In this document: one piece after another, positions 9,701 to 22,329 of the stretch | Numbering within the stretch: position 1 is the first letter of the stretch | How the letters are laid out: every line of letters starts with the position of its first letter | NCBI GenBank assembly: GCA_947626395.1 | Contig: CANQRU010000003.1 | Coordinates: forward strand, 85,819 to 149,818 | Length of the DNA: 64,000 bases | Direction: 5' to 3' | DNA from: an uncultured Lachnospiraceae bacterium | GTDB lineage: Bacteria; Bacillota; Clostridia; Lachnospirales; Lachnospiraceae | The notes under the pieces: model-generated | The model's input: only the letters and a program-made list of their open reading frames with translations | What the model was told of the DNA's origin: nothing | The model's database searches: none | Made by a program: the position numbers and the translations under genes

Positions 9701-11234
9701 GGAACGTAAACTCCACTCCATCGACCACGCCATCACTGAACACCTCTTCTTTGGAGCAGATCGGGCAGACAAATTCACACTTGTGGGCAGGTCTGTAGCC
9801 ACACTCTTCGTTGTGGACATGAACTGCCGGCTCCTCCTCTTCCGAAAAGAAGTCGTCATCGCTATCCGCATGGGTGTCCCCTGTCCCTTCCTGACTCTCT
9901 TCGGTCGCGGAAGGTGCAGTTGTCTCAGCTGCGTTTGTCTCTTTCTCAGACTCGGACTCTGTTGTCTCTACTGCGCTCGTCTCTTCCTCAGACTCGGACG
10001 CCGTTGTCTCAGCTGCGCTCGTCTCTTCCTCAGACTCGGACGCTGTTGTCTCAGCTGCGCTCGTCTCCTCGGTCTCGGCTGCACTCGTCTCGACCACGGT
10101 CGTTTCTTCCTCGGTCTGAGATGCCGTCGTCTCCGCTGCGCTCGTCTCTTCCTCAGTCTGAGGCGCAGTCGTCTCCGCTACGGTCGTCTCTTTCTCAGTC
10201 TCGGGTGCTGTCGTCTCCGCTGCAGTCGTCTCCTCCTCGGTCTCGGCTGCGCTCGTCTCTATCTTTCCATAATATTCATCAACTACTCCCGGGCCTTCAT
10301 TGAACCATCCCATGGCTACCGGTGCATCTGCGATCACCACCTGGGACGCTTCCGTCTCGGTCTCGGCGGTCTCTTCTGCCGGGGTCTCAGCCGGAGCTTC
10401 CGTCGGCTCGCTTTCCAGAGCCTTCTCCGATGCTTCCGTCGGCTCGGCTGCCAGAGTCTCTGTCGCGGCAGTCTCTTCCGCTGTGGTCTCGTCTGCGACG
10501 GCCTCGGTGCTTTCTTCTACCGTGGTTTCAGTCTCAGCCGCGGTAGTCTCGGCTGCAGCTTCTGTGGTTTCTGCCGGCGCTTCGGTCTGATCAGTTGCCG
10601 TAGTCTCTTCCGGTGCCTCGGTCTGATCGGCCGCCGAAGTCTCTGCCGGCGCTTCGGTCTGATCGGCCGCCGAAGTCTCTGCCGGCGCCTCGGTCGGCTC
10701 GGTTGCCTGGGTCTCTACCGGAGCTTCAGTCGGTGCATCTGCCTGAGTGTCAGCCAGAGCTTCGGTCAGATCATCCGTCTCACCGTCAGCGTCTTCCGTT
10801 ACGTTTTCGACAACGATCTCGGATATCTCTCCCTCGATATTCTGTCCTTCTTTGAGTGCCTCTTCATATTTGCAGGGGCTTCCCGGATCATAGCCGCAGT
10901 CTTCCGTATGGGTCGGATGATGGATACATAATCCGTCCTCATACGATACCTCTTCTTCCTGCTCTTCCGGCTCAACGACCGTTATGGAAGTCTCGCCCTG
11001 CTGAATCTCCTCGTACTCCGGCTCTGTCTCGGAATTCTCTGAATTCACATACGACGCCGCTTCGGAACTGCTGACTGCCCACGCGTCGATGCCTACGCTC
11101 GTAAACACCATGCTCAGGGCCAGAACGCCCGCGGTGATGCGCTTCGTCATCTTCTTCCGGCTGAAATTCCGCGCGAATGCGCCAAGCCGTCCGAGTCCTG
11201 TGTTCGCAAGTCTCATTTCTTTCCTCTCCTTCAT
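720..11234 (-). CDS. giant cell-wall-anchored surface protein (signal peptide, Thr/Glu-rich stalk, SdrD_B-like and FctA/Spy0128-like domains, 7 DUF11 repeats, NPGG repeats, sortase signal APMTGD + TM + KKK)
   Basis: ORF 720..11270; a start at 11234 (MKERKEMRLANTG) or 11216 fits RBS-like GGGAG/AAGGAGAGG better. C-terminus APMTGDNKPVGAAALFGLLALGMMGAFGILGFKKKDEEDA is a sortase signal; seven IxKEQ...VTYYLTVTN.G...A..V.V.D.VP repeats are DUF11 (TIGR01451-like). Confidence 0.93.
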   Translation of the reverse strand: MKERKEMRLANTGLGRLGAFARNFSRKKMTKRITAGVLALSMVFTSVGIDAWAVSSSEAASYVNSENSETEPEYEEIQQGETSITVVEPEEQEEEVSYEDGLCIHHPTHTEDCGYDPGSPCKYEEALKEGQNIEGEISEIVVENVTEDADGETDDLTEALADTQADAPTEAPVETQATEPTEAPAETSAADQTEAPAETSAADQTEAPEETTATDQTEAPAETTEAAAETTAAETETTVEESTEAVADETTAEETAATETLAAEPTEASEKALESEPTEAPAETPAEETAETETEASQVVIADAPVAMGWFNEGPGVVDEYYGKIETSAAETEEETTAAETTAPETEKETTVAETTAPQTEEETSAAETTASQTEEETTVVETSAAETEETSAAETTASESEEETSAAETTASESEEETSAVETTESESEKETNAAETTAPSATEESQEGTGDTHADSDDDFFSEEEEPAVHVHNEECGYRPAHKCEFVCPICSKEEVFSDGVVDGVEFTFPESLENGVVYEGQEISLLEGVTAKKELVIDDNTPWYEGMPTSIDYKVKVFTVASDVSEPEEWNKAGNTLTPKTETTYHVVYTAWDEDSNRMVSAISRELETTVGEIKITITVPENKFLAGYTFADNDEPVRIELFKDVQVSPETYDGNPITLTVEVKCTKTDENGNVLDPKIATYTRGTDNDRAFLELSSSNDGETYEITYSAQPETPDIKPTTWMTTFSVVNPTKIGKRLREDKAVIKCAALAKGKNDNGYAMLTGGSVEMDESAGPGNDKSKTNDIVRTYDTVAYTVDLSTGTQEEGGQLFETGRIYFELVLPCSVDQAQFATDAMGWMNTVPEMAYKVTDMGDRQVLRGSYLLVPKNDETAAIGNSNRQMSVVVRVLAMKNRETLQPKFTYWLEGNDVGVEYASASVPSYENKDVNVDVKYPTGDTLATDSNHECKEHHKKEYMTVEPPAVTISARLMMDLKVHLDNDNSTLSFGTFDFSTGNSTAPNRTTESTLVKGRLGVFGVSIELVGESKTKGLVGMELPDESEDITFTLTMTNDYVGSKEGVSGSYTYRGNELTDYPVKFWSAGPNLNEGDKIQPDGREIQSTNPYASNVLPWNEWINEANAYRTCYDGGEWSFEYGANNTVKVKVSGYRIREALAQMKVPYTYVGASNVTTTYYNKDEIGMQYWKLQRAIFSTGEIWAVQKAYVNADETEWDDGAAQQKMGSGTFHVTLTSSDAKVGDRKIDNSVWTAQNDFPLERPGTIDNEIVYHAYKQGWGHPLIEEGWENGRDWAMPGKPVSLEDVVFYNGADGQWLGVAVDQMIKFDADFFEPDAVSSSGVSSGDRSVVDGGNQMSAANALKLWGIKPDKKNWSSDQEMQEATPDDLIFYNTYEEAKQNGQCVAFLIEWRGVADSGRTHLIEVIDGKVKDDCPTDQVYMITHTAHAWRKNEVEKYATAWRDEKYPERAGKPLSDAEYTEYVKVGFPTRGDRSSIGGKNNAGKQCKFLSEGKGVTSEFWWSSVYGEGKAKGQSGGKNGERPNTDAHVTDFKKSIYDSHQGNWTSAGTGYVKGGDACLVVGHSTSISKNVAQKAYDSVTGTWTLDKSTFSMDDKQRFVDFVLNPNIEVAVASSDGSNKITDTVYIEDTLPKELEYLEDPGSVIGSAEDYSGDVNGHSPGSVKGGKSITTVARPNPDGTTTLKWTIELKDFPITAETTPIGPIYFTCKIGKEGNTKEDVVDQQVITNNVKIWSDYDSNKREFKKYNNNVASATINISRLNSSNVVKRAKNVYVEVGSTMTYEMLVGNDSENDLEEQVIIESLPYNGDGASSFTGPLNVLNFTANFTDKSTPVSGNLKFYYTTNPAYRPIKSEDFIVTQDSNGDPGKAKLERGIFDDRNKWTPIEPYDTVSLEYKPGKDVGEIVAFAAVGTLPGGKTLQMNIDLDLPKGKPGDHVVNRLSNSTLESSDKTSIVNRRLEGLTWFDTDHDGLQGDGEPRLENVKVTLLKLREGGDPTDIADYDVYKAKNNKDAVILTGQQMDLLVGDPEQYSGSDNRARYLFSHLPSGTFAVKFESSDTVDLGDYIASPVDKVPGQKRNADSDATPSYKPGNEGVDYTAILGIDMPVAGAMTSATYNSPYHDSGFHGVDLTIRKAIRWDAYTSAEKQNEIQGNRYDFAVETDEALTSYETSAGTDINLSGKQAKVSVTGAGQVTIYNLPVGKTITVSEYDGQANIEGLDRKTTVRSGEVTESNKISVTTSKDNDKAIEIAYTNEYTSPYVTISKTQEKNSDGNITNEKLTVKNRNEITYYLTVENKGEGTAKSVIVHDTVPQEAEVITSSYEVGGKTFGAGITNAKIPLELKAESDSAGVTTYAISDGGAYDSETHEITWDLGNMPAGDTKVVSFTVIVPDVAYETHWNNIATVAYDNPPKEPEPSNKVEIEEFAPNIEIIKEQQRFDGPRTKNELGVGKDDIITYYLTVKSTGKEDAEDVVVTDVVPQEAEQTRVVDGKEVKDIVTLPLILDKESIHAVRKHADGTTYDDPDLKHGYNESTNTITWYLGDIPVGESVEVSFQVSVPDVDTVTRWANAGAAKYGNNPNGPEEEIPTNKVEIEELAPHILIEKEQSVNGGTRTKAYDIPDGVDGGDRVTYYLTVTSDGSEAAQQVTVKDIVPQTAEQIRVEDDGTVRRDTVDLPLILDKSTISAKKIGKWGEGGLKYMSDYNENTHEIRWDLGDIPVGGIVEVSFTVEVPDVKYETIWDNVGRTSYKNDPHKEETPEIPSNHVRIEEEGVTLIQEKTHAVNDEKPTTKPLQVKDKDIVTYAIKVTNNGPSTANDILVYDSIPEGEPELTLVEGSISEGGELQADSKSIIWKIEKLEKGESATVSFQVEVHDTDHNQTWKNIAYVYHDPQNPDPEDPDPKNPEDPWEPTNDVEEEEKFPVLTIEKEQSSNREPRTKNGIRVYGEDTVRYYLVVKNTGGEAATDVEIRDVVPQQALQTEIIDGEKQQKTVELPLILKEDSSTVSGYAISNNGTYTESEKTITWKFEEIPAGGSVEVTFDVTVPEKVGVYEWTNTGAVKYDNDPKKDPEDPWTPSNEVKIKEQTPELTQTKTQAVNGGSADALTRTVIEDDEVTYYITVTNTSDADAESVKIYDAIPEAVPANGAKLTVAKNADGSDRISDGGKLRADGSAIDWTIALIPARSTKTVEFTVVVPDVSENTKWTNIAYVHPNDPDDPDPKDPDPENPEDPWNPTPEVEIEEKYPIVSIVKEQSSAGHERTRNAFSVTGGDIVTYYLTVTNSGEETAEKVVVEDQIPQKTIQGDDLPLSLVEGSITEGGQLQSDGITIVWEIGDMGAGTSKTVSFQVIVPYAAGTKNWRNVATTWYENPPADPENPENPPEGSKENPTPSNEVEVQKNNPGGNPGGNPGGNPGGNPGGNPGGNPGTEIPDNPTPLAEFPDSPVPLAGFETIEDEDVPLAFLAPMTGDNKPVGAAALFGLLALGMMGAFGILGFKKKDEEDA
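950..1036 (-). repeat. 12-bp tandem repeat encoding (NPGG)7
   Basis: Alternating ccgggattacca/cccggattacct units; protein GGNPGGNPGGNPGGNPGGNPGGNPGGNPG just before the sorting signal. Confidence 0.95.
1040..4440 (-). repeat. seven tandem DUF11 domains (about 150 aa each)
   Basis: Protein repeats starting ITISKTQEKN, IEIIKEQQRF, ILIEKEQSVN, VTLIQEKTHA, LTIEKEQSSN, LTQTKTQAVN, VSIVKEQSSA, each followed by (I/V)xYYLTVxNxG...VxDxVPQ. Confidence 0.9.
9915..10265 (-). repeat. 42-bp tandem repeats encoding Thr/Glu-rich stalk (ESEEETSAAETTAS)n
   Basis: Unit gacgctgttgtctcagctgcgctcgtctcttcctcagactcg repeated with substitutions. Confidence 0.9.
10575..10710 (-). repeat. 36-bp tandem repeats encoding (EAPAETSAADQT)n
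   Basis: gccggcgcttcggtctgatcggccgccgaagtctct repeated about 3-4 times. Confidence 0.9.
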
Positions 11235-19601: not shown

Positions 19602-20300
19602 CTATTTTCCCTGCCCGTAATACGCGTTAGCCCCGTGCTTCCGGTAATAATGCTTGTCCTGCAGCTCCTGCGGCGCCGGCTTCACCTCCGGGTTCAGCCA
19701 CTCGCACCGCGCCGCCATCTTCGCCACTTCCTCCAGCACCACCGCATTGTGCACCGCCTCATGGGCATCCTTCCCCCACGTAAACGGCCCGTGGTTCTTG
19801 CAAAGTACCGCCGGCGTCGCCTCATAATCCAGACCATTTTCCTCGAAATGATCCGCAATCAGAATCCCGGTATTCAGCTCATAAGCCTCCTCGATCTCCT
19901 CTTTCGTCAAATTCCGCACGCAAGGCACCGTCCCATACAGATAATCCGCATGCGTCGTCCCATAGCACGGAATCCCCCTCCCGGCCTGCGCCCAGCTGGT
20001 CGCCCACGGCGAATGCGTATGCACCACGCCCCCAATTTTCGGGAACCGATTATACAGCACCACATGCGTCGCCGTATCCGAAGAAGGATTCAGCTTCCCC
20101 TCCACCTTCTTCCCATCCAGATCCACGACCACCATATCCTCCGGCGTCAGCTTCTCATAATCCACCCCGCTGGGCTTGATCACGAACAACCCTGCCTCCC
20201 GGTCGATCCCGCTCACATTCCCCCATGTAAACGTCACCAACCCATACTTCGGCAGCAGCATATTCGCCTCATAAACTTCTTTCTTCAGTTGCTCAAGCAT
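19602..20300 (-). CDS. araD: L-ribulose-5-phosphate 4-epimerase
   Basis: [68 protein letters not shown]. Confidence 0.96.
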
Positions 20301-20336
20301 CTCTCATCATCTCCTTCTAATTTCATCCATCCTCTC

Positions 20337-20460
20337 AACGACAGCGAAGCGCCTCGCCCTTCTCCCAACGACAGCGCAGCACCTCGTCCCTCCTCCCGAC
20401 GACAGCGCAGCGCCTCGTCCCTCCTCCCGACGACAGCGCAGCGCCTCGTCGTCTCAGCCT
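20337..20460. repeat. 30/31-bp tandem repeat, 4 units
   Basis: acagcg(a/c)agc(g/a)cctcg... recurring at 20341, 20371, 20402, 20433. Confidence 0.92.
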
Positions 20461-20472
20461 GCCGACAGCCCA

Positions 20473-20675
20473 GCGGATGAGAACTTGTCTGTATGGGCTG
20501 ACTTTGCAGGATGGTTAGAATTTCTTAGTGAACAGCAATTTGTGTTATCACGAAAAATGGACTTGTTTGAGCGAAGCGAGTTGTCCATTTTTCGTGATGC
20601 TTTTAGCAAATTGCTGTGAGCTTAGAAATTCTTCCGTCCGAAACCGGAAGCCCAGACAGACAAGTTCTCATCCGC
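20473..20675. repeat. 203-bp long imperfect palindrome
   Basis: Outer arms GCGGATGAGAACTTGTCTG (20473-20491) / CAGACAAGTTCTCATCCGC (20657-20675) perfect; inner arms AGAATTTCTTAG...CAGCAATTTG...ATCACGAAAAATGGAC / GTCCATTTTTCGTGAT...CAAATTGCTG...CTTAGAAATTCT; centre ttgtttgagcgaagcgagtt. Confidence 0.95.
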
Positions 20676-20739
20676 GGACCTCCCGCCATCTCAATAAGCC
20701 TGCATCCACCCCTCATCCGCGGACCTCCCGCGTCCAGGC

Positions 20740-22329
20740 TCAGATCAGGCACTCCAGCGCCGCCTTCTCAATCCCAATCCCCTTCTTATACCGCTCAATA
20801 AACCTCTCAAATCCTTCCACCGCCCGCGGATCCGGCTGCATCTCCTCGCCCTTGTTCCCCAAGAACACCTTCTCTGCCAGGAAATCCCCCAGGCTCTCAT
20901 CCGTATCCTTATGTATCATATACGACGCCAGCAGCGCCATCCCCCACGGGCCGCCCTCGCCCGCCGTCTCCATCACCGACACCGGCGTATCAATAGCCGC
21001 CGCCAGGAATCCCTGCCCAACGCCCTTCGTCTTAAACAACCCGCCGTGCCCCAGGATCGAATCAATCCTCACATGCTCCTCCTTCAGCAGGATATCCATA
21101 CCCACCTTCAGCGCCCCCAGCGCCGTAAACAGATTCGCCCGCATGAAATTCGCCAGATTGAACTTACTCTCCGGCGACCGCACAAACAACGGCCGTCCTT
21201 CGCTGACGCCTGTAATATTCTCCCCGGACAGATACCCATAAGACAGCAGTCCTCCGCAGTCCGGATCCCCCTCCAGCGCCTTATTATACAGCGTCCCAAA
21301 CAGCGTATTCATATCCAGCTTCACCCCAATGCTGTCCGCGAACTCCTTAAACAAACCAACCCACGCGTTCAGATCCGACGTGCAGTTATTGGCATGAACC
21401 ATTCCCACCAGGCTGCCGTCCGGCGTAGTCACCAGATCGATCTCCGGATACACCTTCGAAAGCTCCTTCTCCAGCACCACCATCGCGAATACGGAAGTTC
21501 CCGCAGACACATTGCCGGTCCGTTTCGCCACGCTGTTGGTCGCCGCCATACCGGTTCCCGCGTCGCCCTCCGGCGGGCAGATTGGAATCCCCGCCTCCAG
21601 AGTCCCGCTCTCATCCAGCAGTCTGGCTCCCGCCGCCGTCAGCACGCCGGCCGGCTCCCCAGCCATCAGAGCCTTCGGCAGGATATCCCGAAGCTTCCAC
21701 GGATAGCCCTTATCCGCCACCAGATCGTCGAACTTCGCGATCATTTTCTCATCGTAATCCTTCGTCTCCGGATCGATGGGAAACATACCCGAAGCGTCGC
21801 CCACGCCCAGCACCTTCTCGCCGGTCAGCTGCCAGTGGATGTAGCCCGCCAGCGTCGTGAAGAAGGCCACGTCCTTCACATGCTCCTCGCCGTTTAGGAT
21901 GGACTGGTACAGATGGGCAATGCTCCATCTCTGGGGAATGTTGTAGTGAAACAGCTCCGTCAGCGCCTCCGCCGCCGGTCCGGTGATCCCGTTGCGCCAG
22001 GTACGGAACGGCGCCAGCAGGTTCCCCTCGCTGTCAAAGGCCATGTAGCCGTGCATCATGGCGGAAAAGCCGATGGCCCCCACCTTCGTCAGCTTCACGC
22101 CGTATTTGGCCTTCACGTCCGCCGCCAGCTTGCTGTAGCAGTCGCGCAGGCCCGTCCAGATATCGTCCAGGCTGTAGGTCCAGACGCCGTTCTCCAGCCG
22201 GTTCTCCCACTCGTGGTCGCCGGAAGCGATAGGCGTGTGGGACTCGTCGATTAAGACCGCCTTGATGCGGGTGGAGCCCAGCTCCAGACCCAGAACGCTG
22301 CTCTCGATTGCTTCTTTGATGCTTGCCAT
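20740..22329 (-). CDS. FGGY-family carbohydrate kinase (putative ribulokinase of the arabinose pathway)
   Basis: [19 protein letters not shown]...[16 protein letters not shown]...[30 protein letters not shown]; adjacent to araD. Confidence 0.88.

What the first reader, a model, noticed from the sequence alone, without database searches (positions are those of the whole stretch)
20473..20675. 203-bp near-complete palindrome inside the arabinose gene block
The + strand folds from perfect 19-bp outer arms through long inner arms to the centre ttgtttgagcgaagcgagtt. It sits between two same-strand genes (FGGY kinase and araD), so a transcript would carry a very large hairpin. It has no ORF of its own, which is compatible with a non-autonomous palindromic (REP/MITE-like) element or an intra-operon mRNA processing or stability element.
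Basis: partly seen in the sequence, partly recalled or inferred. Interest (0 to 1): 0.6.

Follow-up and report, generated by a model that had tools for sequence, protein, structure and literature searches.

The report
Mobile giant-hairpin DNA in arabinose operon
The 203-bp palindrome is one of 13 copies of a non-coding, hairpin-shaped mobile DNA element that landed between two sugar-metabolism genes, and it belongs to an apparently undescribed family, spread through gut Clostridia and relatives, whose hairpin arms differ from copy to copy yet stay perfectly matched while a central core stays the same.

Summary
The palindrome is real: window 20473-20675 folds at z = -14, with perfect 20-bp outer arms. 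It is not single-copy. A covariance model finds exactly 13 full-length copies in this 3.46-Mb Lachnospiraceae genome. Sister species give an empty site here: in three of them the kinase stop and the araD start are only 16-17 bp apart. In this genome and two relatives a 420-530 bp insert (repeat array, hairpin, right-end repeats) separates the genes; a fourth relative keeps a core-deleted remnant. Close relatives in Hungatella are 287-290-bp palindromes, 33 of 76 with perfect 8-bp target duplications (0.4 expected); H. hathewayi has one clean empty site.

The unusual part is the conservation pattern. The ~150-nt core and its apical motif TGTYTGAGCGNAGCGAGTT are conserved across genera. The outer arms and termini are hypervariable but remain Watson-Crick complementary, with no wobble preference (65 G·T, 58 A·C). 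That points to DNA-level arm homogenisation (probably template switching), not RNA selection, for the arms. Nothing matched in Rfam or in the papers searched.

The mobilising enzyme was not found, and copies in this genus show no target duplication, so their mechanism is inferred.

The parts
20473..20675 (+). Giant imperfect palindrome (hairpin); outer arms 20473-20492 / 20656-20675 perfectly complementary
   Evidence: 13 copies in genome
20499..20648 (+). Conserved ~150-nt core shared with other copies and other genera (covariance model R1, positions 1-150)
   Evidence: G000:C3:106317-106466, E = 1.7e-28; alignment A2
20564..20582 (+). Apical motif TGTTTGAGCGAAGCGAGTT (family consensus TGTYTGAGCGNAGCGAGTT)
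   Evidence: G000:C3:106382-106400; conserved across genera
20327..20450 (+). Four 31-bp tandem REP-like units (CGACGACAGCGCAGCGCCTCGTC...), left part of the inserted segment
   Evidence: family D8; similar left-flank unit arrays at other copies
20667..20686 (+). Right-border unit CTCATCCGCGGACCTCCCGC, first copy (overlaps end of right arm)
   Evidence: conserved right border in alignment
20712..20731 (+). Right-border unit, second copy
20317..20738 (.). Whole inserted segment (array + hairpin + right repeats), absent in G004, G002 and G021; ends uncertain by a few bases

Best explanation
The palindrome is a copy of a non-autonomous, non-coding mobile element (MITE/REP-like) built as one giant hairpin. 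SHOWN: it is dispersed in 13 copies in this genome; it is insertion-polymorphic at this locus; Hungatella relatives with the same core make fixed 8-bp target duplications. INFERRED: a trans-acting transposase that recognises the ends moves the Hungatella branch by cut-and-paste or copy-paste; the copies in this genus were spread by some trans-acting enzyme too, but which one is unknown (no duplication seen, asymmetric border with a small hairpin). INFERRED: the arms stay complementary while their sequence drifts because DNA polymerase template switching within the hairpin copies one arm onto the other; the core escapes this and keeps fixed mismatches and an apical motif because something, a protein or an RNA-level function, selects it. 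In the arabinose operon the insert separates the kinase stop codon from araD's ribosome-binding site, which is kept. Any effect on the mRNA is a side effect not yet measured.
For: 13 full-length copies in own genome. Empty site at the window locus: kinase-araD spacer 16-17 bp with intact RBS in G004/G002/G021 against 420-530 bp in G000/G012/G018, and a core-deleted remnant in G001. Second own-genus locus empty in G009. Hungatella: 33/76 perfect 8-bp duplications, 0.4 expected from shuffled flanks; clean empty site for L130 in H. hathewayi, and no element at the L148 and L110 sites; only 8/76 inside ORFs against ~82% of random positions. No retained ORF or Rfam family. Arms: 3906 WC, 65 G-T, 58 A-C cells, up to four WC types per pair; double changes rise from 0.36 to 0.86 of changed pairs with divergence while core divergence levels off near 0.10. 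Core covariation 282 both-sided cells against 94.5 shuffled. Template switching can create and maintain hairpins: PMC8794818 (abstract).
Against: No target duplication is detectable in own-genus copies, so their transposition mechanism is not shown. No autonomous element with matching ends was found. Empty sites could in principle be losses. Insert ends at the window are uncertain by a few bases. Template switching was not observed directly; very close copies show mostly one-sided changes, so homogenisation is not immediate.
Confidence: 0.87

Rival explanations
1. Functional RNA dispersed by mobility: the core is a structured RNA (or its protein-binding site) with a host or element function, and pairing is maintained by selection on the transcript.
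For: Core and apical motif conserved across genera while arms vary. In Hungatella, core pairs with a Watson-Crick consensus show 116 G-T against 31 A-C, as expected if that strand acts as RNA. Fixed internal mismatches persist.
Against: Own-genus core shows no such asymmetry for the same class of pairs (33 G-T, 41 A-C). Arms show none (65 vs 58). No Rfam family. Tandem orientations relative to genes are balanced, 19 vs 23.
Confidence: 0.25
2. Intra-operon mRNA element: the hairpin is kept here to terminate, cleave or stabilise kinase-araD mRNA.
For: Position exactly between kinase stop and araD RBS, retained in G000, G012 and G018; very stable fold.
Against: Species of the same genus do without it, with a 16-17 bp spacer; G001 has lost the core; the same element occurs at 12 other loci.
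Confidence: 0.12
3. Single-strand (IS200/IS605 or RAYT-like) mobilisation of the own-genus copies: the folded strand is cut and pasted without target duplication by a Y1 transposase.
For: No target duplication; asymmetric border with a small hairpin (GCGTAACTTACGC type) and neighbouring REP-like arrays; the genome holds one Y1_Tnp gene.
Against: The gene reads like an ordinary IS200 TnpA and no link between its ends and the element was shown; Hungatella relatives clearly make 8-bp duplications.
Confidence: 0.2
4. Simple locally generated palindrome, for example by fork template switching at this locus, not a mobile element.
For: Template switching can make hairpins (PMC8794818).
Against: Homologous core at 13 loci and in other genera, empty sites.
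Confidence: 0.02

Closest known systems
[quoted passage not shown] QMITE2 of Coxiella, ERIC and Chunjie (named in the review PMC10969869)
   Same: Non-coding, short, intergenic, stable stem-loop, terminal inverted repeats and 8-bp duplications (Hungatella branch), multi-copy.
   Different: Here the interior core and apical loop are the conserved part across genera, while the inverted arms and termini are hypervariable yet perfectly matched; no parent insertion sequence identified.
REP/REPIN and RAYT systems, GTAG/CGTC families (PMC3733652)
   Same: Palindromes in intergenic arrays; own-genus copies sit beside short repeated palindromic units; no target duplication found there.
   Different: REP stems in that paper are 6-13 bp (GTAG) or 8-9 bp (CGTC); here the hairpins are about 200-300 bp with a conserved core; no RAYT link shown.
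IS66 family insertion sequences
   Same: 8-bp duplication and GTAA-starting ends in the Hungatella IS66 copies read here.
   Different: Their ends (GTAAGCGCCAAGTATTAGGG) do not match the palindromes (GTTAC/GTAACAGTTCA).
Long structured RNAs in Rfam
   Same: Large conserved secondary structure.
   Different: No family matches at gathering threshold; whole element is one hairpin and is mobile.

Membership tests
MITE | Non-coding, under ~600 bp, multi-copy and dispersed | tested here: met
   13 copies, no retained ORF, ~200-420 bp
MITE | Target-site duplication of fixed length | tested here: inconclusive
   Met in Hungatella relatives, 8 bp in 33/76; not found in own-genus copies
MITE | Empty sites in related genomes | tested here: met
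   Window locus in G004/G002/G021; L005 locus in G009; Hungatella L130
MITE | Terminal inverted repeats shared with an autonomous parent element | tested here: not met
   None found by pattern search in H. hathewayi and in 0.95 Mb of held sequence; the search was limited. It is therefore called MITE-like, not filed as a MITE of a known family
REP/REPIN with RAYT | Short (20-40 bp) palindromes with GTAG or CGTC tag and a RAYT gene | tested here: inconclusive
   Neighbouring 31-bp palindromic arrays exist; only one IS200-like Y1 gene; the giant hairpin does not fit the size
IS66-derived element | Ends match IS66 terminal repeats | tested here: not met
   Only the first 3-4 bases and duplication length agree
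Known RNA family | Rfam covariance model match | tested here: not met
Integron attC site | IntI-type recombinase and conserved R/L boxes | not tested
   Considered only by analogy (variable stems, fixed unpaired bases)

The most novel reading that the evidence does not exclude
A phylum-wide superfamily of giant hairpin mobile elements is recognised through its folded core and apical loop (TGTYTGAGCGNAGCGAGTT) as single-stranded DNA or RNA by a dedicated, still unknown factor, while ends and arms are free to change as long as they match, reversing the usual rule that a transposon's ends are its conserved part.
Probability: 0.25. Interest if true: 0.85.

Novelty: new variant of a known kind. Interest (0 to 1): 0.6.

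Why it matters
The family offers a natural record of how long DNA palindromes survive and evolve in bacteria: arms that turn over freely but in step, beside a core that keeps fixed mismatches. It makes two open questions testable: whether template switching maintains long hairpins in bacteria, and what recognises a conserved structured core when the ends vary. Recent insertions in cultured Hungatella mean that mobility and its enzyme can be sought directly. It also marks an uncatalogued source of intergenic insertions that can separate operon genes in gut Clostridia.

Tried and rejected
G001's short version of this locus first looked like a pre-insertion site; it keeps the left core border (GACTTTGCAGGATGG), so it is read as a deletion remnant. 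The IS66 origin suggested by GTAA ends and 8-bp duplications failed on end sequence. RAYT mobilisation: one Y1 transposase, IS200-like, no link shown. End-only matches in H. hathewayi proved to be deletion remnants or unrelated, none an autonomous element. A search for inverted end pairs up to 4.5 kb apart in ~0.95 Mb of held sequence gave no gene-sized element with a duplication. Scan for target duplications at own-genus copies: no enrichment at any offset. Plasmid and phage collections: no match; three viral contigs hold the apical motif, not followed up. Papers: the motif string occurs in three unrelated papers only; no paper on Hungatella/Lachnospiraceae elements of this kind surfaced. Covariance-model hits below ~60 bits in the order may include unrelated hairpins; only inspected ones are relied on.

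Full report
Observation. Window 20473-20675 is a near-complete palindrome with 20-bp perfect outer arms. The + strand folds at -123.5 kcal/mol, z = -14 against dinucleotide shuffles. It lies between a minus-strand FGGY kinase (20740-22329) and a minus-strand class II aldolase of the araD type (19602-20300), near transketolase and transaldolase genes. No Rfam family matches the window.

Copies in the genome. A DNA search of the window's own genome gave 13 homologous loci. A covariance model from 28 cores of several genera (150 positions, 44 pairs) found exactly 13 full-length copies, the window copy at E = 1.7e-28. An alignment of 32 own-genus copies shows a shared left border (CCCAGCG), a shared right border (GCG-GTAnCTTCCGCGA) and a conserved core, while the ~27-bp outer arms differ strongly between copies and remain complementary within each copy. 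Two sister elements share these borders but have a branched interior (L021, L022).

This locus in relatives. G001 carries a remnant lacking the central ~130 bp. In G004, G002 and G021 the kinase stop and the araD start are 17, 17 and 16 bp apart, with the ribosome-binding site AAGGAGAT intact; in G000, G018 and G012 the same spot holds ~440, 472 and 533 bp. The segment gained is therefore about 20317-20738: the four 31-bp units (20327-20450), the hairpin and the duplicated right-border unit. More distant species have spacers of 58-172 bp without the hairpin, some with other tandem arrays. Gain in this clade is the simpler reading; loss is not formally excluded. A second own-genus copy (L005) has an empty counterpart in G009, directly downstream of an intrinsic terminator. 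No target duplication could be found for own-genus copies.

Relatives in Hungatella. A pattern from the core's left half hit 96 stretches, mostly in Hungatella effluvii, H. hathewayi and Clostridium sp. chh4-2. These are palindromes of mostly 287-290 bp with ends GTTACAGTTCA...TGAACTGTAAC; 33 of 76 are flanked by perfect 8-bp direct repeats against 0.4 expected from shuffled flanks. Only 8 of 76 lie inside open reading frames, compared with 82% of random positions in the same loci; just one lies between convergent genes and the two tandem orientations are balanced. H. hathewayi lacks the element at three sites occupied in H. effluvii, one of them a clean junction with a single copy of the target. 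Deletion remnants flanked by near-perfect duplications also occur, as expected for unstable palindromes.

Conservation pattern. In 65 Hungatella elements the arm pairs are Watson-Crick in 3906 cells, G·T in 65 and A·C in 58, and a single pair may show all four Watson-Crick types. G·T does not exceed A·C, so pairing of the arms is not explained by RNA-level selection. Arm divergence between copies reaches 0.5-0.7 while core divergence levels off near 0.10. Among changed arm pairs the share changed on both sides rises from 0 in the three closest pairs through 0.36 and 0.52 to 0.86, so one-sided changes are later completed. Template switching, reported to create and maintain hairpins (PMC8794818, abstract read), is the most economical process; it was not observed directly here. 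The core keeps T·T and tandem G·A mismatches in this genus and a GTT / GCTTTTA-type internal loop across genera, which homogenisation alone would erase. Core covariation is strong (282 both-sided cells against 94.5 shuffled, collapsing when partners are slid). In Hungatella the core shows more G·T than A·C (116 vs 31 at Watson-Crick-consensus pairs), but in this genus it does not (33 vs 41), so an RNA role is open.

Breadth. The model finds hits in 23 of 295 genomes of the order. Inspected hits show the same apical motif on long hairpins with other arms, some with more than 100 bp of nearly perfect arm. The apical motif alone is found in 14 of 399 genomes across the phylum, mostly in several copies, against none for the reversed control. 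Nearly all inspected copies sit at the tip of a hairpin whose stem is otherwise unlike the others. Whether all of these descend from one element was not tested.

Mechanism. Shown: dispersal, insertion polymorphism, and fixed-length duplication in one branch. Inferred: a DDE-type transposase in trans for the Hungatella branch. Its IS66 elements also make 8-bp duplications and begin GTAA, but their ends otherwise differ, and no autonomous partner was found. For this genus the lack of duplication and the small border hairpin would also fit a Y1 single-strand transposase, of which the genome has one IS200-like copy; no link was shown.

Verdict. The element is a MITE-like mobile hairpin of an apparently undescribed family. 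The reversal of the usual pattern (conserved core, variable but matched ends) is the part worth follow-up.

Noticed in passing
L021 and L022 (G000:C38:3115, C19:52629): Sister elements with the same outer borders but a branched, multi-hairpin interior containing strong stem-loops.
   Followed up: partly
L188:460-611 (H. hathewayi 558460): 151-bp element with ends GTAACAGTTCAG and a near-perfect 8-bp duplication but a different interior of three stem-loops, probably moved by the same enzyme as the giant hairpins.
   Followed up: no
window 20327-20450: Four 31-bp tandem REP-like units directly left of the hairpin; similar locus-specific unit arrays flank other copies, and other arrays fill the same spacer in relatives lacking the hairpin.
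   Followed up: partly
L130 (H. effluvii) and L005 (G000:C16): Insertions lie immediately downstream of intrinsic terminators, suggesting a target preference or a safe-site bias.
   Followed up: no
genome G585: 36 copies of the apical motif, many within 70 bp of contig ends, so the element probably breaks this assembly.
   Followed up: no
L273, L274, L275 (G408, G648): Two hairpins in divergent orientation about 300-450 bp apart recur in two genomes of one family; possible composite arrangement.
   Followed up: no
window 9873-10782: Long stretch of 36- and 42-bp tandem repeats, outside the finding.
   Followed up: no
L268-L270: Three IMG/VR contigs carry the apical motif exactly; they may be host sequence or carried elements.
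   Followed up: no
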